Source: a virus
Reading direction: 5' to 3' (one strand)
Length of the DNA stretch: 35,885 nucleotides
Virus record (IMG/VR): IMGVR_UViG_3300048927_000812
Coordinates: 1-35,885 of that record
Shown: in pieces, positions 1 to 35,885 of the stretch
How the letters are laid out: each line of letters begins with the position of its first letter
Position numbering within the stretch: the stretch's first letter is position 1
Notes under the pieces: generated by a model
What the model saw: only the letters and a program-made list of their open reading frames with translations
Told to the model about the DNA's origin: nothing
The model's database searches: none
Program-made: the position numbers and the translations under genes

Positions 1-1536
1 TTACGGCAATGACCAAGCCGCGCGCGGATCGCTGATCTTGCGCATTATGGGCGACCCGATCTTCACGACCCCGATCCCGCCCGCGTTTGAACGGAACTGG
101 ATCGTGATCGGGCGACTGGTCCATCGCAACCGATTGGCACCGGCAGTCGATTTCACCGGTAGCTTCACATCCAGCAGGTAGGTCCGCCCACCCCCGCCGT
201 TGCCGGTGAAGATGTTCGTCTCCCAGATCAACGCGTTGGCAGCGCTATACTGCTCATTCTGGGTCCAGATCGGTCCACCGCCAGTGTTGCTTGCGTTCCA
301 TGTCCACCCATCCCAGCCGTTCAGTTCGATCGGAATGAGCACCTGAACCCAATCACCCTCCGCAACACCGAGGATTGTGAAGCTAATGTCGGCGGTCGTC
401 GTTAACCGAAACTGATGCAGGGTCGTGCCATCATTGACCGACGTGATGGTCAACACCTGCTTCTCGTTGCCAATTGCGATAACTTCTTTGCTGGCAACAG
501 CCGTCGATGTGCCGACCGGCCGCGTCACGCTGAAGCCGGTAGCTACGTTGCCGGTAATTCCCGTCGCCTTGCCGCCGCTCGTTCCGGGCAGGCCAGCATA
601 GGGGAAAAGATTTCCCGACAGCGGATCAACGTTCCGGTCGTCACCAGCAGTAACCATGGACTGGAGGATCGGCATCAGCGAGTTCGCCAGCACGGTTGCG
701 CCATAAGATGACGGGTGGACACCATCGCTGCCGATAATCGCGGTATCTCCAGTTCCCCAGGTGGACGACGCCGTAGCGTCGATCGCGGTCGTGTCCCAAA
801 CCTTCACGCCATACCGAGAGGATTGCTTCAAAATCCAGTTGTTGAGCGTATTAATAGAGGCCAGTCGGGCATCACTGGCAGCCCAATCGAAGCGCCAACC
901 CGCCGTCTTGATGACCACCCACACTCCAGCGTTGTTGAAAAGGCTGATCTGTCGATCGAGATGAGCGATGATGGCCGCGATACTGTTGTCGCCAGTGCCG
1001 CTCAGTCCACTGGAAATATCATTTGTGCCAATGTCCAGCACAATGATGTCAGGCTTGCGAGCGAGAGCATAGGACGAGCGATTGATCGTCCCCGGTATGT
1101 TGGCGCTATTGTAGATCAAATGATCACCGGACAGCCCCTGCTGTGATCCCGTTACAGCATTCCCCCCAACCGGCATCCGCCAGGGCATGTCTATCGATTC
1201 CTGCGCAAAGGTATCGAGGTTGAATCGTCCATCCTGATATTTGATTGGATAGAGATAGCTCTGCGGCGTCTCGCTAGTCCCCTGATGTCCATTGGTTGCG
1301 GTCTGGCTGGCGAGATAACGGCTATAGGTGCCGCGACCCATGAAACTGTGCCCCACCCCCATGACCTTCGCGCCGGTAGCGAGAGGCAGGGACGGCAGCG
1401 TGCGTTTCGGGAAACCATAGGCTGCCCCGACGGCGGTCGGCGTATCGCCCACGACCTGCGCGGCAGTGGGCTGCACCGCCACCGCGAAGAGTGGCAACAC
1501 CATTTGCAAAAGCAAAATGGAAAGCAGCTTGCGCAT
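1..1536 (-). CDS. Secreted SGNH/GDSL-family hydrolase
   Basis: The 511-residue protein has a Sec signal peptide (residues 1 to about 26: KLL near the N-terminus, a hydrophobic core, then TAAQ). SGNH hydrolase blocks follow. Block I is GHSFMG with the nucleophile at Ser64, with His where the usual Asp of GDS stands. Block III is DIGTND with Asn172, and block V is SDGVHP with Asp271 and His274. These enzymes remove acyl groups from sugars or lipids. The C-terminal 200 residues look like a beta-rich carbohydrate-binding or jelly-roll module and have no motif I can name. It is the last gene of the late operon, and its ATG overlaps the stop of the upstream gene (TGATG). Because it has a signal peptide and lies beyond the lysis genes, it may be exported by the infected or lysogenic host rather than built into the virion. 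The substrate is unknown. Confidence 0.85.
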   Translation of the reverse strand: MRKLLSILLLQMVLPLFAVAVQPTAAQVVGDTPTAVGAAYGFPKRTLPSLPLATGAKVMGVGHSFMGRGTYSRYLASQTATNGHQGTSETPQSYLYPIKYQDGRFNLDTFAQESIDMPWRMPVGGNAVTGSQQGLSGDHLIYNSANIPGTINRSSYALARKPDIIVLDIGTNDISSGLSGTGDNSIAAIIAHLDRQISLFNNAGVWVVIKTAGWRFDWAASDARLASINTLNNWILKQSSRYGVKVWDTTAIDATASSTWGTGDTAIIGSDGVHPSSYGATVLANSLMPILQSMVTAGDDRNVDPLSGNLFPYAGLPGTSGGKATGITGNVATGFSVTRPVGTSTAVASKEVIAIGNEKQVLTITSVNDGTTLHQFRLTTTADISFTILGVAEGDWVQVLIPIELNGWDGWTWNASNTGGGPIWTQNEQYSAANALIWETNIFTGNGGGGRTYLLDVKLPVKSTAGANRLRWTSRPITIQFRSNAGGIGVVKIGSPIMRKISDPRAAWSLP

Positions 1537-2058: not shown

Positions 2059-2613
2059 TCAGCCGCCCTCTCTGCCGTTTGCTGGCGCTGCTGGCGAAAA
2101 GACGACTGCCCCCTGTTCCGTCACCCACTGACGCAACGCGACAAGGTTCCACGCCTGCCGCTCAGCTATTCGGAGCTTGGCAAGAAGTCCGTTACAATCG
2201 GCCCCTGCATAAGCTCGGCAGGTGGCTTCGCTGGCGATGGACACTGGAGCCGGGTCGGAACTGCGGAGATCGCTTCGGGCCGCGAGTTGCACGCGCACAC
2301 GGTCATAGCGAGCATCAACATCGGCAAGGCGCGCCTCATAGTCATTTCTGTTCCTTTCGTTGATTGCGGTCTGATCGGCCTTCACGCGCTCGACAGTGGC
2401 CGCCGCCTGCTGCTGGGCGGCGGCGGTCGCAGCGCGATAGTTGGCGACGGTCTGCTGGTGGGCCTGCTGTTCGGCTGCGCGACCCGTCCGGGCGGAGTCA
2501 CGTTCGGCGGTGCGAGCCTCAACCATAAGCAGCAGCACAGCGACGATGACGACGAGAACAGCGATCACCCCTTCGCGCCACCAGCGAGAGGCAATGGCGA
2601 ACGCCGCGCTCAT
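2059..2613 (-). CDS. Rz-like inner-membrane spanin (i-spanin)
   Basis: The 184-residue protein has one N-terminal transmembrane helix (about residues 15-31, Val/Ala/Leu-rich) followed by a long Ala/Gln/Arg/Glu-rich helical segment (about 32-110) with coiled-coil character. This is the topology of phage Rz proteins, which span the periplasm and fuse the inner and outer membranes after endolysin action. Two Cys near the C-terminus (TCRAYAGADC) could form a disulfide. It overlaps the holin gene by four bases (ATGA) and follows the endolysin, a standard lysis cassette order. A complete Rz1-type reading frame lies inside it in the +1 frame (separate entry), which strongly supports the Rz assignment. 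There is no clear sequence identity with lambda Rz; the assignment rests on topology, position and the nested partner. Confidence 0.8.
   Translation of the reverse strand: MSAAFAIASRWWREGVIAVLVVIVAVLLLMVEARTAERDSARTGRAAEQQAHQQTVANYRAATAAAQQQAAATVERVKADQTAINERNRNDYEARLADVDARYDRVRVQLAARSDLRSSDPAPVSIASEATCRAYAGADCNGLLAKLRIAERQAWNLVALRQWVTEQGAVVFSPAAPANGREGG
2166..2345 (-). CDS. Rz1-like outer-membrane lipoprotein (o-spanin), nested in the Rz gene
   Basis: A 59-codon frame starts at ATG 2345 and ends at TAG 2166-2168, wholly inside the i-spanin gene in the +1 frame. AAGGA lies six bases upstream of the ATG. The product begins MTMRRALPMLMLAMTV: two Arg, then a hydrophobic stretch, then VCAC, a lipobox-like site with Cys19 as the likely lipidated residue (Cys at -2 is unusual). 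The predicted mature chain of 41 residues has eight prolines and a segment QCPSPAKPPAELMQ that closely resembles the Pro-rich part of lambda Rz1. Signal, lipobox, length, Pro content, ribosome binding site and full nesting all match the lambda Rz/Rz1 arrangement. In the envelope it would sit in the outer membrane and bind the periplasmic end of Rz. Confidence 0.82.
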   Translation of the reverse strand: MTMRRALPMLMLAMTVCACNSRPEAISAVPTRLQCPSPAKPPAELMQGPIVTDFLPSSE

Positions 2614-2882
2614 GGCCGTTCCTCCAGCGCGACCGGATCAGCAGGCGGCAGCTTTGCAATCAGCCGTTCGTTCACGGTCTCGCTGGTGTCGCGTGCCTTG
2701 AAGGTGCCGATGACGCCGATCAGACCCGTGACGGCGGCGCCGATGAAGCCGAGCGCGGCAACGATCTGCGCGAGATGGGAATCCGGCTCGACGGAAACGC
2801 AGATGATCGCAGCGACGATCGACATGATGACGATCGCGGCCAGCGTCGCCAGATAGGCGACGACGTTGTGGCGATTGTTCAT
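2610..2882 (-). CDS. Putative holin (two transmembrane segments)
   Basis: The 90-residue protein has two predicted membrane helices (about 8-30 and 38-61), separated by a short acidic loop (VEPDSH), and a charged C-terminal tail with both Lys/Arg and Glu. Size, topology and position fit a class II-type holin: its gene overlaps the endolysin stop by four bases (ATGA) and the spanin start by four bases (ATGA). A holin would form the timed inner-membrane lesion that releases the endolysin. Holins have little sequence conservation, so this is an assignment by topology and neighbourhood. The 125-residue membrane protein at 3456-3833 is a possible alternative or an antiholin-like partner. Confidence 0.75.
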   Translation of the reverse strand: MNNRHNVVAYLATLAAIVIMSIVAAIICVSVEPDSHLAQIVAALGFIGAAVTGLIGVIGTFKARDTSETVNERLIAKLPPADPVALEERP

Positions 2883-3394
2883 GCCTCATCCCTCGAAATG
2901 GGGGCGCCGACCGCCGACAGCCTCACCGGCCCACCGATGACGGGCCAGCCCTTGGGCCACCGCCGCGCGATGCAGCGCGATTTCTCCAGCCGCATGATGC
3001 TGACCGCGTCGCCCTGATTGCCGCCCAGGACATGATAATGGCTGGCGTCCTCGCCCACATAGAAGGCGACATGGCCGCCGCCAGTCCGCTCGAATACGAG
3101 GATTGCGCCGGGGGCGAGCCGATCGGCGGCAATGACGCTGCCCCATGTCGCCCACGCCTTGGCGCGAACGCCAACCTTCATTTCATCGAGCGAAACACCG
3201 GCTGCGCGAAGGCAGTTAGCAACGAACAGCCCGCACCACGGCACGCTGTCGGCATTATAGACGATGCCCAGCACTCTGACGCCGAGCTGCTTTGCCCAGG
3301 CTAGGATGGATGGATTGTTGGCGGCCCCGGCAGCTTCACGCGTGCCGAGAAGCGCCCGCGCAGCCGTCAGCCATGCAGGGTTGGTAGAACCCAT
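2879..3394 (-). CDS. Endolysin, CHAP/NlpC-P60-like amidase (TIGR02594-type)
   Basis: The start is taken at ATG 3394, which has GGGAG seven bases upstream. The open frame continues 29 codons further but that part looks non-coding. The 171-residue protein has the papain-like hallmarks of the TIGR02594/CHAP group: PWCGLFVANCLR with the nucleophile Cys, and GGGHVAFYVGE with the catalytic His about 65 residues later, followed by a LGGNQGD segment typical of the family. Such enzymes cut amide bonds in peptidoglycan. There is no signal peptide, so release would depend on the holin. It is followed without a gap by holin and spanin genes, forming the lysis cassette. Confidence 0.85.
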   Translation of the reverse strand: MGSTNPAWLTAARALLGTREAAGAANNPSILAWAKQLGVRVLGIVYNADSVPWCGLFVANCLRAAGVSLDEMKVGVRAKAWATWGSVIAADRLAPGAILVFERTGGGHVAFYVGEDASHYHVLGGNQGDAVSIMRLEKSRCIARRWPKGWPVIGGPVRLSAVGAPISRDEA

Positions 3395-3455: not shown

Positions 3456-3833
3456 TCAGCCCGAACCCAGCAGCCGGTCATGAGCCGCGATGGTGGCCCC
3501 TAGTTGCCGGGCCTGCCCCTCGCCATCGACATAGGCTTGCAAGCGCGTAAGCCTCGCCTCGGTATCCCGTTTCGATGAGTGACAATCCTCGACTTCCACC
3601 TCCAGCTTCTCGATGCGCTCGTCCTGTGATTTGAGCCGGGCTTCCAGTGTCAGCCGGTAGCTCTTCCAACTTTGATCCAGTTCGGCGCGCTGCTGGTCGT
3701 TCACCGCCGCCACCCTGTCCGCGCGGCCAGTCAACCAGAGAATGAGCCAGCGCATCCCGTAGAGACCGCCGCCCAAACTCAAGCCGCCCGCCGCGACCTG
3801 CGCCACTTCACCCGCCAGACCGCCTTCGCTCAT
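3456..3833 (-). CDS. Membrane-anchored coiled-coil phage protein
   Basis: The 125-residue protein has a Gly/Leu-rich hydrophobic stretch plus MRWLILWL (about residues 14-34), then a charged helical segment (about 40-95) with heptad-like spacing of Leu/Val and many Lys/Glu, suggesting a coiled coil. The start has a strong purine-rich ribosome binding site (AAGGGGGA). Position between the tail genes and the endolysin resembles small membrane/coiled-coil proteins of Mu-like and related prophages (DUF2730-like), some of which sit in lysis cassettes. I cannot assign a function. It might be a second holin, an antiholin or an unrelated membrane protein. Confidence 0.7.
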   Translation of the reverse strand: MSEGGLAGEVAQVAAGGLSLGGGLYGMRWLILWLTGRADRVAAVNDQQRAELDQSWKSYRLTLEARLKSQDERIEKLEVEVEDCHSSKRDTEARLTRLQAYVDGEGQARQLGATIAAHDRLLGSG

Positions 3834-4803: not shown

Positions 4804-6837
4804 TCAGATGGATTGGGTAGCGAGGCGGAGATAGGCGTCGGCGATGACCCGCCCGCCCGTCGCCGGTTCGGGGTGGATCAGGTCGGCGTTGAACCATGGC
4901 CGCTCCGGGTTAGCGGCGGCATAGGCGAAGGCGTAGTTGGCGGGCGATCCGAAATAATATTGCAGGTCCAGATGCGCGCATGCGGACTGCACCGCGAGCC
5001 GTCGCTGCGCCGAGGCAAGCTCGGCCATCGGCCTCACATTGTTGGTTCGCTGGTTCTCAGGCGGCGTGGATAGGAGAATATCGCAGGCCGGGCGGGCGGC
5101 GCGGATATTGCCGACGACCGTGGCGAGCTGGTTGGCGAAACCGTTGCCGTCGAACCATGGCTGGTCGTTCGTCCCGAACAGCAGGATGGACAGATGAGGC
5201 GCGAGCTTGCCGATCGCGGCTGACCAGCCCGCTGCGGGCATGGATGACCAGTGCTGGCTGTGCGACCCACTCGACGCGATCTTCTGTACGCGGATGCCCG
5301 GCGCGTTGCTGCGCATATCGACGCCAGCCAGGGCGACGTTACCGGACATGACGCGCAGCCGCGCCGTGGCCGCCGTCGCGGGCAGGCCCGGCAGCAGGAC
5401 ACTGCCGCCGCCCGTCGTGGTCAGCGCGATGTCGGCGGAATAGGTCGCGCCGTCATCCCAACTGACCCGAATAACGCCGGTGCCGTCGCCACCATAGAAC
5501 AGCTCCGCCGCATTGTGGCCTGCGGGGAAATTCCACCGCGCATAAGCGCCCGCCGTGCTGCTGGTGACAAGGCCGAGGCTTGGCACCGCATCGACCGTCT
5601 GGCGATAGGTGCAGTCCCATGCGCCGATCAACTGGCAGATCGTCACCTGATTGCCGAAGCAAGCGCCCCTGTCCATGTTGACGGGCTGGTTGCCCGCGCT
5701 CCACGTCCCGGTGAAAGGCGCGGTGAGCCAGGGAAAGCCCAGCCAGCCGACGCCCGCCAGCCCATATTCTGCGATCAGCGTCTGTGCGAAGGGGCCGACC
5801 CAGCGCGAAACATTTTGCGAATAGCTGTCGCCCAGGATGCAGATGACCAGTTGCGCGCTTTCGCCCAGCAGCAATTGCCGCAGGCGCAGGCGAGTTTCCT
5901 GCAACAGCCATGCGCCATAGGTCGGCCCGATCGGGTCGCCATAGGCGGTCAGGCCGGTGTCGATGCGCTGGGCGAGCGTCAGGCGGCTTCCGCGCGCGTC
6001 GGCCACTTCCTTGGCGGTCGCCGCCGCCGCATCGCTGCCGCCGCCCCCGATCCGGGATATCAACCGCCCGAAGCTGGTCAGCACCAGCAGCTGCGCATCG
6101 TCCACCGTTTCGAAGCTGCTGATCGACAGCGCCTCGCTCACCTCCTCTTCCGCCAGCCGGATGACCTCGCGCCCGCCGGGCGACAGGATCATCATGCGGG
6201 CAGGCTCCAGCGTTTCGAACAGCGCACCCTCGACGAATGCGGACGTGTCGATCGGCGCGGGCGGCAGCGCTGCCGGTTCGCCGATCGCGCCAATCAGCTT
6301 TCCGTTGGGGCTGAGGATCAGCATGTCCACGGGATCGAGCGTTTCGAACGATCCGCCCGCGACGAGATTGGAGATATCGACCGCCGCCGCTGCCGCCGCG
6401 GACTGCCCCACCGCAGCGACCTGACGACCGTTGGGCGACAGGATCAGGAAGGTGATCGGCTCGATCGTCTCGAACAGGTCGAACTTTACGGCGGCATCCG
6501 TCAGCGTGTTGAGCAGTCGGCCGTTGTCCGACAGGACCAGCGTCACGCCTTCATAGGCGAGGGTTTCGAACACGCTCGACCGGGTTAGGTTGAGCGCCGC
6601 GACCGCTGCCGCAAGTTGGGCGATAGCGGCCGAGGGATCGCCATGCAGGATTTGCAGCTTGGCCGGGCATGGGATCAGCACCACCGTGCCATCGGGCTGG
6701 GTGAAGGGATAATTGCCGTTCAGCGACGGCCCCCCATTCACGCGCCCCGCAGTCCATTCGGCCAGTTCGCCCTGAAGGCTGGCGAGCTTACCGACGACGG
6801 CAATCATCTGTGCCGCCGCTTCAGCCCATGTCGTCAT
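4804..6837 (-). CDS. Tail-associated SGNH hydrolase with N-terminal repeats
   Basis: The 677-residue protein has no signal peptide. Residues 1-85 form a possible attachment domain. Residues 90-265 hold five repeats starting FET and carrying LILSPNGR-like cores. From about 300 onward it is an SGNH esterase: ILGDSYS with nucleophile Ser338, FGTNDQP with Asn557, and NADLIHP with Asp652 and His655. A beta-rich insert (about 375-510) sits between blocks I and III. Such tail esterases deacetylate or otherwise trim surface polysaccharide during adsorption. The gene overlaps the 57-residue gene upstream by four bases (ATGA) and sits among tail-tip genes, so it is probably a virion component. It and the secreted 511-residue SGNH protein share the catalytic blocks but not the N-terminal architecture. 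Confidence 0.85.
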   Translation of the reverse strand: MTTWAEAAAQMIAVVGKLASLQGELAEWTAGRVNGGPSLNGNYPFTQPDGTVVLIPCPAKLQILHGDPSAAIAQLAAAVAALNLTRSSVFETLAYEGVTLVLSDNGRLLNTLTDAAVKFDLFETIEPITFLILSPNGRQVAAVGQSAAAAAAVDISNLVAGGSFETLDPVDMLILSPNGKLIGAIGEPAALPPAPIDTSAFVEGALFETLEPARMMILSPGGREVIRLAEEEVSEALSISSFETVDDAQLLVLTSFGRLISRIGGGGSDAAAATAKEVADARGSRLTLAQRIDTGLTAYGDPIGPTYGAWLLQETRLRLRQLLLGESAQLVICILGDSYSQNVSRWVGPFAQTLIAEYGLAGVGWLGFPWLTAPFTGTWSAGNQPVNMDRGACFGNQVTICQLIGAWDCTYRQTVDAVPSLGLVTSSTAGAYARWNFPAGHNAAELFYGGDGTGVIRVSWDDGATYSADIALTTTGGGSVLLPGLPATAATARLRVMSGNVALAGVDMRSNAPGIRVQKIASSGSHSQHWSSMPAAGWSAAIGKLAPHLSILLFGTNDQPWFDGNGFANQLATVVGNIRAARPACDILLSTPPENQRTNNVRPMAELASAQRRLAVQSACAHLDLQYYFGSPANYAFAYAAANPERPWFNADLIHPEPATGGRVIADAYLRLATQSI
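6043..6570 (-). repeat. Five tandem FET-LILSPNGR protein repeats in the tail hydrolase
   Basis: Residues 90-265 contain five degenerate repeats, beginning FET at residues 90, 122, 164, 207 and 242 (spacing 32, 42, 43 and 35). Each has FET(L/I/V) followed after about 8 residues by a hydrophobic (L/M)(I/V)L(S/T), then NG(R/K) or GGR or FGR. The second to fourth copies are best conserved and are separated by Ala/Pro-rich linkers. This looks like a beta-hairpin repeat stalk between virion attachment and enzyme. Confidence 0.8.
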
Positions 6838-34163: not shown

Positions 34164-34333
34164 ACGCCCCGGCCAAAATCACGCGGGGCACCGACCCCGA
34201 TATGATCGCTTTCGCTCAAGCTCTTGCAAGATTGCAGGTTGCGAGAGACATTGCCGCACTTCGCGCTGCGCGAAAGGGTGGCCTGAATGGAGAATACAAT
34301 GCGGACCGTCATCTATGCCCGGTTCAGCCATGA
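34160..34333 (+). CDS. Small protein overlapping the integrase start
   Basis: ATG 34160 overlaps the previous stop by four bases. The 57-residue product (MNAPAKITRGTDPDMIAFAQ, then a helix ALARLQVARDIAALRAARK) ends at TGA 34331-34333, 35 bases inside the integrase gene measured from its preferred start at 34299. Short helical proteins next to serine integrases are candidate recombination directionality factors. This rests on position only. Confidence 0.5.
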   Translation: MNAPAKITRGTDPDMIAFAQALARLQVARDIAALRAARKGGLNGEYNADRHLCPVQP

Positions 34334-35885
34334 AAATCAGAACCCCCGGTCCATTGCTGACCAGATAGCCCTGTGCCGCCAGCGGGCGGAACAGGAAGGC
34401 TGGACGGTTGTGGGCGCCTTCGAGGACGCGGCGACCTCCGGCGCTGCCGGGATTGGCGAGGATCAGCGCCCCGGCCTGAATGCCATGATGCGCATGGTCG
34501 AAGCGGGCGGGGTCGATCAGGTGCTTGCCGAATCGACCGACCGCGTCGCCCGCCACGTCGCGGACGCCCACAATCTGCGCGAGCGCATGGAGTTCGCGGG
34601 CGCCCGCCTGTTCACCCTGTTTGATGGCACCGTGACCCCCATGATCGGGCTGGTCAAAGGCTTCATGGATGCCCAGTTCCGCACGGACTTGGGCAAGCGC
34701 GTCAGGCGTGGCCACATCGGCACTGTCAAGCAAGGCAGGGCGCCGGGCGGCATTCCCTATGGCTATCGTCAAGCCAATAGGATTGATGAGAATGGCGGAC
34801 TGATCCGGGGGCTGCGCGAAATCGACCCCGAAAGGGCGGAGATTGTTCGCCGCATCTTCACCGAATACGCAGCGGGCAAAAGCCCGATGTCCATCGTCCG
34901 CGATTTGAACATCGAAGGCATTCGGGGGGCACGGGGCAACCTCTGGCACTCGACATCCATCGCGGGCGAGAAAACGCACCGGCGCGGCATCCTGCGCAAC
35001 GAAATGTACATCGGCATTCTGACCTATGGGACCAGCCGTCAAGTTGTGAACCCGCAGACCCGGCGTCGCCTGATGCGGCCCAATCCGGTCGAGGACATCA
35101 TTCGCCATCCGCTACCGGAACTGCGGATCATTGACGATGCCCTGTGGCAGAAGGTGCAGGATCGGCTTGCCGCCAACACCGGCACCCGACCCGAACGGCT
35201 GCGCCGCCCGAAGCACATCCTTTCCGGTGTAGGCGAATGCAGCGTCTGCGGCTCCGCGTGGGTGATGGTGAGCAGCCGATATTGGGGATGCAGCCGCTTC
35301 CGATATGGCGGCGACTGCACCAACAACCGCTTGGTCAGCAACAAATGCTATGAAGAGCGAGTGCTGGCCGACCTCAAGCAAGGCATGATCGCCCCGGAGG
35401 TGGTCAGCGCCTATGTCCGCGAATATCATCGCGACTTCGCGCGGGCATCCGCCGACCTTAGCCGCGACCGCGCCCGCGCCCAGCGCAAGCTGGAGGAAGC
35501 AGAACGCAAAAAGGAACGGCTGTTGAAGGCCTTTGCAGAAGGCGGCAGCGAGTTTGCTGAGATACGCGACATGCTGGCAGCCGCGCGGGAAGATGCTGAA
35601 CGCCTCGCCCGCGAACTAGCCAGCATGGATGCCGTACCCACGGTGCTGACCCTCCACCCTCAGATTGAGCAGGTCTATCTACAGCAGGTCGAAGAGCTGG
35701 AGACGGCCTTGGCGGCGCCGGACGCGCGACTAGAGGCGATCCCCAAGCTGCGCGCCATGATCGCCCGCATCGTCGTGTCGCCCAATCTGGAGAAGCAACG
35801 CGGTGTCACGCTGGAAGTCGTGCGCCAGATGGACGAAATTCTGTCGATTGTAACCGGGGTGCAGCAGAAGGCGAAGTTACGCTAA
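34299..35885 (+). CDS. Large serine recombinase (integrase)
   Basis: ATG 34299 has GGAG six bases upstream and is preferred over ATG 34287. The 528-residue protein has the resolvase domain: VIYARFS with nucleophile Ser10, AESTDRVAR with Arg82, a conserved FDG region and RTDLGKRVRRGH leading into the recombinase domain (GRAPGGIPYGYR, then the middle part ending LWQKVQDRL). A zinc ribbon follows with Cys314, 317, 331 and 340 (CSVCGSAW...WGC...GGDC), then a coiled coil of about 385-440 (RAQRKLEEAERKKERLLKAF). This is a complete phage-type serine integrase. It ends the operon and the window, so no att site can be placed. Confidence 0.95.
   Translation: MRTVIYARFSHENQNPRSIADQIALCRQRAEQEGWTVVGAFEDAATSGAAGIGEDQRPGLNAMMRMVEAGGVDQVLAESTDRVARHVADAHNLRERMEFAGARLFTLFDGTVTPMIGLVKGFMDAQFRTDLGKRVRRGHIGTVKQGRAPGGIPYGYRQANRIDENGGLIRGLREIDPERAEIVRRIFTEYAAGKSPMSIVRDLNIEGIRGARGNLWHSTSIAGEKTHRRGILRNEMYIGILTYGTSRQVVNPQTRRRLMRPNPVEDIIRHPLPELRIIDDALWQKVQDRLAANTGTRPERLRRPKHILSGVGECSVCGSAWVMVSSRYWGCSRFRYGGDCTNNRLVSNKCYEERVLADLKQGMIAPEVVSAYVREYHRDFARASADLSRDRARAQRKLEEAERKKERLLKAFAEGGSEFAEIRDMLAAAREDAERLARELASMDAVPTVLTLHPQIEQVYLQQVEELETALAAPDARLEAIPKLRAMIARIVVSPNLEKQRGVTLEVVRQMDEILSIVTGVQQKAKLR

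What the first reader, a model, noticed from the sequence alone, without database searches (positions are those of the whole stretch)
2166..2345. Hidden Rz1-type o-spanin fully nested in another frame of the Rz gene
A 59-codon frame, just below usual ORF cut-offs, lies in the +1 frame inside the i-spanin gene. It has AAGGA at the right distance, an Arg-Arg/hydrophobic signal, a lipobox-like VCAC and a Pro-rich mature part with QCPSPAKPPAELMQ, close to lambda Rz1. All features match the nested Rz/Rz1 architecture. It would be missed by automatic annotation.
Basis: partly seen in the sequence, partly recalled or inferred. Interest (0 to 1): 0.8.

Follow-up and report, generated by a model that had tools for sequence, protein, structure and literature searches.

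The report
Nested phage lysis gene (Rz1 spanin)
A phage hides a small outer-membrane lysis protein (Rz1) inside another reading frame of its partner gene (Rz), the same arrangement as in phage lambda; it is real and conserved in phages of sphingomonad bacteria, but it is a new member of a well-known kind.

Summary
On the minus strand, Rz (2613..2059, 184 aa) contains a 59-codon frame in +1 (2345..2166) with AAGGA six bases before its ATG.

Length alone is not significant: 36% of synonymous recodings of Rz give an ATG-started +1 frame this long, but only 0.6% give a lipoprotein-like one. Conservation settles it. Every distinct Rz relative found with Rz alone in viral contigs and phage records, and 17 of 19 strong hits from 398 genomes of one bacterial family, carry the same +1 nested lipoprotein; the other two are frameshifted or truncated. 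Synonymous change in Rz drops from 0.37 outside to 0.13 inside the overlap. The 59 residues match the PHROG Rz-like spanin family (E 1e-6). Rz models as an N-terminal membrane helix, linker and second helix.

One correction: the family's lipid cysteine aligns with Cys17, not Cys19. The window alone has Val at -1 (Ala/Gly/Ser in nearly all others), through a change silent in Rz, and has a second Cys at 19 in an acceptable lipobox (VCAC). Its lipidation site has probably slid by two residues.

This is an embedded two-component spanin like lambda Rz/Rz1; 182 such pairs were listed in 2018. New member of a known kind.

The parts
2059..2613 (-). Rz, the i-spanin: 184 aa, N-terminal transmembrane helix (about residues 15-33), long helix to about 112, linker, second helix about 143-168
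   Evidence: phrog_214 E 8e-4, phrog_13 E 5.5e-3, both Rz-like spanin; hydropathy 3.0; AlphaFold2, mean pLDDT 72.8, helices 2-112 and 143-168
2166..2345 (-). Rz1, the o-spanin: 59 aa lipoprotein precursor, +1 frame, wholly inside Rz
   Evidence: (phrog_3198 Rz-like spanin E 1.2e-6)
2352..2356 (-). Ribosome-binding site AAGGA of Rz1, inside the Rz coding sequence; it uses an AGG arginine codon (4% of arginine codons in nine other genes of this phage)
   Evidence: GAAAGGA is in the same place in most relatives, including most that are only about 35% identical in Rz
2289..2297 (-). Lipobox region of Rz1: Cys17 (2297-2295, aligned with the lipid Cys of all relatives, but Val at -1) and Cys19 (2291-2289, V-C-A-C)
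2202..2243 (-). Cys35 and Pro-rich core CPSPAKPPAELMQG of Rz1; Cys35 aligns with lambda Rz1 Cys29
   Evidence: lambda Cys29 forms the intermolecular disulfide (PMC5295617)
2610..2882 (-). Putative holin: 90 aa, two transmembrane segments, ATGA overlap with the Rz start
   Evidence: two segments, scores 2.87 and 2.42; searches give no confident family; function inferred from position
2879..3394 (-). Putative endolysin (NlpC/P60- or CHAP-like); the ATG at 3394 has GGGAGA in front, a longer frame starts at 3481
   Evidence: phrog_1259 tail lysozyme/hub E 5.6e-31, phrog_9589 endolysin E 9e-5; a 77% identical gene lies directly upstream of Rz in L002 and L003

Best explanation
2345..2166(-) is a functional embedded o-spanin (Rz1) paired with the i-spanin Rz (2613..2059). 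Both are read from one mRNA stretch; Rz1 translation starts from its own internal ribosome-binding site. Rz1 is exported, cleaved and lipidated in its lipobox and anchored in the outer membrane. Rz sits in the inner membrane with a periplasmic helix-linker-helix. The two periplasmic parts bind each other, and once the endolysin has removed the peptidoglycan the complex fuses or disrupts the outer membrane to complete lysis. Shown here: the frame, its conservation, double-frame constraint and the lipoprotein and Rz features. Inferred from lambda: translation, lipidation, complex formation and fusion.
For: Frame, start and RBS in the sequence. PHROG Rz-like spanin hits for both proteins. Relatives found by Rz alone carry Rz1: 3/3, all 12, all three distinct phage-record relatives examined (L014-L016), and 17/19 strong hits in 398 genomes of one family. 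Rz1 stays recognisable where Rz is only about 35% identical. Synonymous change in Rz is 0.134 in the overlap against 0.374 outside, permutation p 5e-5, 1 of 178 circular shifts as extreme; third-position differences fall from 0.44 to 0.17. Cys17 in 33/33 Rz1 sequences including lambda; Cys35 and PP41-42 nearly so. Rz model is a TM helix plus helix-linker-helix. An endolysin-like gene and a two-TM gene lie directly upstream.
Against: Val at -1 of Cys17 is atypical, and the proposed substitute Cys19 is seen only here, so lipidation of this copy is less certain than for its relatives. No SignalP or LipoP run was available. No Pfam family matches either protein above its cut-off. The PHROG hits for Rz are weak.
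Confidence: 0.95

Rival explanations
1. The +1 frame is a chance open frame in a GC-rich gene and is not translated.
For: Length alone is ordinary: 36% of synonymous recodings give a +1 ORF at least this long.
Against: Start, RBS, lipobox, Cys35 and the PP-x-x-L core are kept across relatives with about 35% Rz identity; synonymous sites in Rz are constrained exactly over the overlap.
Confidence: 0.01
2. A genuine Rz1 gene in the family, but this copy is losing function: A16V spoils the lipobox and Cys19 does not rescue it.
For: V at -1 is unique among 33 Rz1 sequences, caused by CGC to CGT, silent in Rz.
Against: Cys19 lies in V-C-A-C, with Ala at -1; relatives L042, L046, L047 and L048 also have Cys at -2 of their lipid Cys (LCAC, LCAC, LCSC, LCGC), and the rest of the protein is as conserved as in relatives. 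Consensus lipobox is [LVI][ASTVI][GAS]C with known deviations (PMC6139136).
Confidence: 0.07

Closest known systems
Lambda Rz/Rz1 (embedded two-component spanin)
   Same: o-spanin wholly inside the i-spanin gene in +1; about 60 aa; lipobox; single mature Cys just before a Pro-rich core; type II membrane i-spanin with helix-linker-helix; last genes of the lysis cassette
   Different: Little sequence identity; Pro-rich core is CPSPAKPPAELM, not a penta-proline; Rz cysteines elsewhere; lipobox shifted in this copy; the Rz1 frame ends at 0.80 of Rz
PHROG 3198 (Rz-like spanin)
   Same: Profile match over residues 7-48, E 1.2e-6
   Different: Only a family-level match; members not examined here
Sphingopyxis phage VSN-002 gene_31 and its unannotated nested frame
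   Same: Rz about 36% and Rz1 about 52% identical, same nested +1 architecture
   Different: Lipobox IAAC with Cys at the position of Cys17; annotated only as a hypothetical protein

Membership tests
Embedded two-component spanin (lambda Rz/Rz1 type) | o-spanin frame wholly inside the i-spanin gene in another frame | tested here: met
   2345..2166 inside 2613..2059, +1
Embedded two-component spanin (lambda Rz/Rz1 type) | i-spanin: N-terminal transmembrane segment and helical periplasmic domain | tested here: met
   One hydrophobic segment at 15-33; helices 2-112 and 143-168 in a medium-confidence model
Embedded two-component spanin (lambda Rz/Rz1 type) | o-spanin: signal sequence with lipobox Cys | tested here: met
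   RR, hydrophobic 6-16, VCAC at 16-19; family lipobox at Cys17. By motif only; which Cys is used is open
Embedded two-component spanin (lambda Rz/Rz1 type) | Pro-rich mature o-spanin | tested here: met
   PP41-42, P36, P38, P49, P56; P41 and P42 each kept in 30 of 32 other sequences
Embedded two-component spanin (lambda Rz/Rz1 type) | Periplasmic Cys for intermolecular disulfide in Rz1 or Rz | tested here: met
   Rz1 Cys35; Rz Cys132 and Cys140; bond formation not testable
Embedded two-component spanin (lambda Rz/Rz1 type) | Located in the lysis cassette | tested here: met
   Endolysin-like gene and two-TM gene directly upstream
Embedded two-component spanin (lambda Rz/Rz1 type) | Complements an Rz/Rz1-defective phage; disrupts the outer membrane | not testable with these tools
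   Needs an experiment
PHROG 3198 Rz-like spanin | Profile match | tested here: met
   E 1.2e-6, 28.9 bits

The most novel reading that the evidence does not exclude
The lipidation site of this o-spanin has moved two residues downstream through a substitution that is silent in the overlapping Rz frame, with a second cysteine taking over: one frame drifts neutrally while the embedded frame compensates. In addition, some i-spanins of this embedded group share their N-terminal membrane segment (MPFNPFSALTSKIFG) with shorter i-spanins whose o-spanin overlaps the gene end or lies outside it, which would mean modules move between architectures that a 2018 survey found never mixed within a family.
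Probability: 0.35. Interest if true: 0.4.

Novelty: new member of a known kind. Interest (0 to 1): 0.25.

Why it matters
It supplies a well-supported embedded spanin family for sphingomonad phages, a group where the spanin of phage Lacusarx could not be identified in 2017 (PMC5648845), and the family motif (lipobox C, then P-[ILV]-x-[AV]-V-x(5)-C-P-x(4)-P-P-x-x-L, roughly) lets nested Rz1 genes be annotated in records that now show only a hypothetical protein. It does not change how spanins are understood.

Tried and rejected
Chance ORF: rejected. Pfam: nothing above cut-off for Rz or Rz1. Rfam and tRNA scans of the window: nothing. Caulobacter phage Cd1 (L017) and L013 hits to Rz1: chance matches, no lipobox frame. 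Weak Rz-profile hits L054, L057, L058 look like other coiled-coil or membrane proteins, not spanins. A near-identical copy of the lipobox DNA was sought in viral contigs and not found, so V16/C19 cannot be checked against a sequencing error. The single genome-contig scan gave one relative only, Sphingobium chungbukense.

Full report
WHAT IS THERE. The window is a viral record carrying a phage with portal-, terminase- and tail-like genes on the minus strand and a serine-recombinase-like gene at 34287-35885 (the roles of these genes are my reading of the translations). At its left end, on the minus strand, lie an endolysin-like gene (3394..2879; phrog_1259 E 5.6e-31, phrog_9589 endolysin E 9e-5), a 90-aa protein with two transmembrane segments, probably the holin (2882..2610), and Rz (2613..2059, 184 aa). 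Inside Rz, in the +1 frame, is the 59-codon frame of the finding (2345..2166), with AAGGA six bases upstream of its ATG.

IS IT MORE THAN CHANCE. In 20,000 recodings of Rz with the phage's own codon usage, 36% had an ATG-started +1 frame of 59 codons or more, so length says nothing. A +1 frame of at least 40 codons with a hydrophobic stretch and a lipobox appeared in 0.64%. The decisive evidence is comparative. Among seven sequences (the window and six relatives that differ from it by up to 40% in Rz), codons for identical amino acids differ in 37% of comparisons outside the overlap and in 13% inside it; only 1 of 178 circular shifts of the overlap gives as large a contrast. Third-position differences fall from 0.44 to 0.17 per codon and their excess over first positions shrinks. 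The ribosome-binding site uses an AGG arginine codon, which makes up 4% of arginine codons in nine other genes of this phage, and GAAAGGA stands in the same place in most relatives.

RELATIVES. Searching with Rz alone, which is blind to Rz1, gave viral contigs, phage records and genomes of one bacterial family around Sphingobium chungbukense. All 12 viral loci and the three distinct phage-record relatives examined have the nested +1 lipoprotein. Of 19 strong genome hits (E below 1e-11), 17 have it; one (L044) has a frameshift that swaps the two frames and one (L045) is truncated at the 5' end. Three weaker Rz hits (L051, L053, L055) are nested as well. Rz1 can still be aligned where Rz is only about 35% identical.

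CORRECTION ON THE LIPID CYSTEINE. In an alignment of 33 Rz1 sequences, lambda included, Cys17 of the window is Cys in all; the residue before it is Ala, Gly or Ser in all but the window, which has Val. The cause is CGT where the close relatives have CGC in Rz, silent in Rz but Ala to Val in Rz1. The window also has Cys19 in V-C-A-C, not seen among the commonest residues at that column in the others. Four relatives have a Cys at -2 of their lipid Cys (LCAC, LCAC, LCSC, LCGC), so V-C-A-C is a plausible lipobox. I infer that lipidation moved to Cys19; a sequencing error cannot be excluded because no second copy was found.

HOW IT WORKS. By analogy with lambda (PMC5295617; PMC6139136): Rz1 is exported and anchored in the outer membrane by its lipid; Rz spans the inner membrane; the two join across the periplasm and, after peptidoglycan loss, fuse or disrupt the outer membrane. 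The features that can be read fit: Rz has one N-terminal transmembrane segment and models as helix 2-112, linker, helix 143-168 (mean pLDDT 72.8); Rz1 has a lipobox, a short linker, Cys35 aligned with lambda Cys29, and a Pro-rich core. Lambda needs a disulfide in Rz or Rz1; here both partners have periplasmic cysteines (Rz Cys132 and Cys140, Rz1 Cys35). Translation, lipidation, complex formation and fusion are inferred, not shown.

KNOWN OR NEW. Embedded spanins are an established class: 182 of 528 two-component systems in the 2018 survey, with 196 o-spanins missing from annotation; about 70% of embedded o-spanins start at 0.4-0.5 of the i-spanin, and this one starts at 0.48. The main text of that survey does not name Sphingomonas or Caulobacter, and lists phages of Rhizobium and Rhodobacter among the spanin-less. 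So this is a new member, with a distinct Pro-rich motif, of a known kind. The host of this phage is not known; a sphingomonad is inferred from the relatives.

SIDE LEADS. Two relatives (L038, L041) appear to have no periplasmic cysteine in either partner's mature part apart from the lipid Cys, a possible exception to the disulfide rule. Embedded-type i-spanins L014, L016 and L034 share the N-terminal segment with L049 and L050, whose o-spanins lie at or beyond the gene end, which suggests module exchange between architectures. Neither was pursued to a tree.

Noticed in passing
L014, L016, L034 against L049, L050 (N-terminal 15-30 codons of Rz): i-spanins with an embedded o-spanin share an almost identical N-terminal membrane segment (MPFNPFSALTSKIFG) with shorter i-spanins whose o-spanin overlaps the gene end or lies downstream: possible module exchange between spanin architectures.
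   Followed up: partly
L038, L041: Rz1 lacks the mature Cys (SEAPRF, SEAPPF) and the Rz partner's periplasmic part also shows no Cys, so an intermolecular disulfide seems not to be required in these.
   Followed up: partly
L044, reverse complement 1003-2029: A frameshift inside the overlap swaps the frames: the Rz frame runs into the Rz1 C-terminus and the reverse, so both genes are broken or the sequence has an error.
   Followed up: no
L036, L042, L059, L061: A sub-group of nested Rz1 proteins without the mature Cys and with a different core (SPSISPPDARLLEPPTVTDF); three of these four lie in one genome (G164).
   Followed up: no
window 3456-3833 (-): 125-aa predicted coiled-coil protein just upstream of the endolysin-like gene, strong ribosome-binding site, no confident family; role in lysis unknown.
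   Followed up: no
window 1-1536 (-) and 4804-6837 (-): A GDSL/SGNH-like hydrolase lies beside the lysis genes (1-1536, Pfam E 4e-10), and the 677-aa protein at 4804-6837 appears by eye to hold a second SGNH-type domain (GDSYS ... GTND).
   Followed up: no
PP395637, PP438420, PP438421: Phages deposited with Microcystis as host carry spanins of this sphingomonad family; the true host may be a bacterium living with the cyanobacterium.
   Followed up: no
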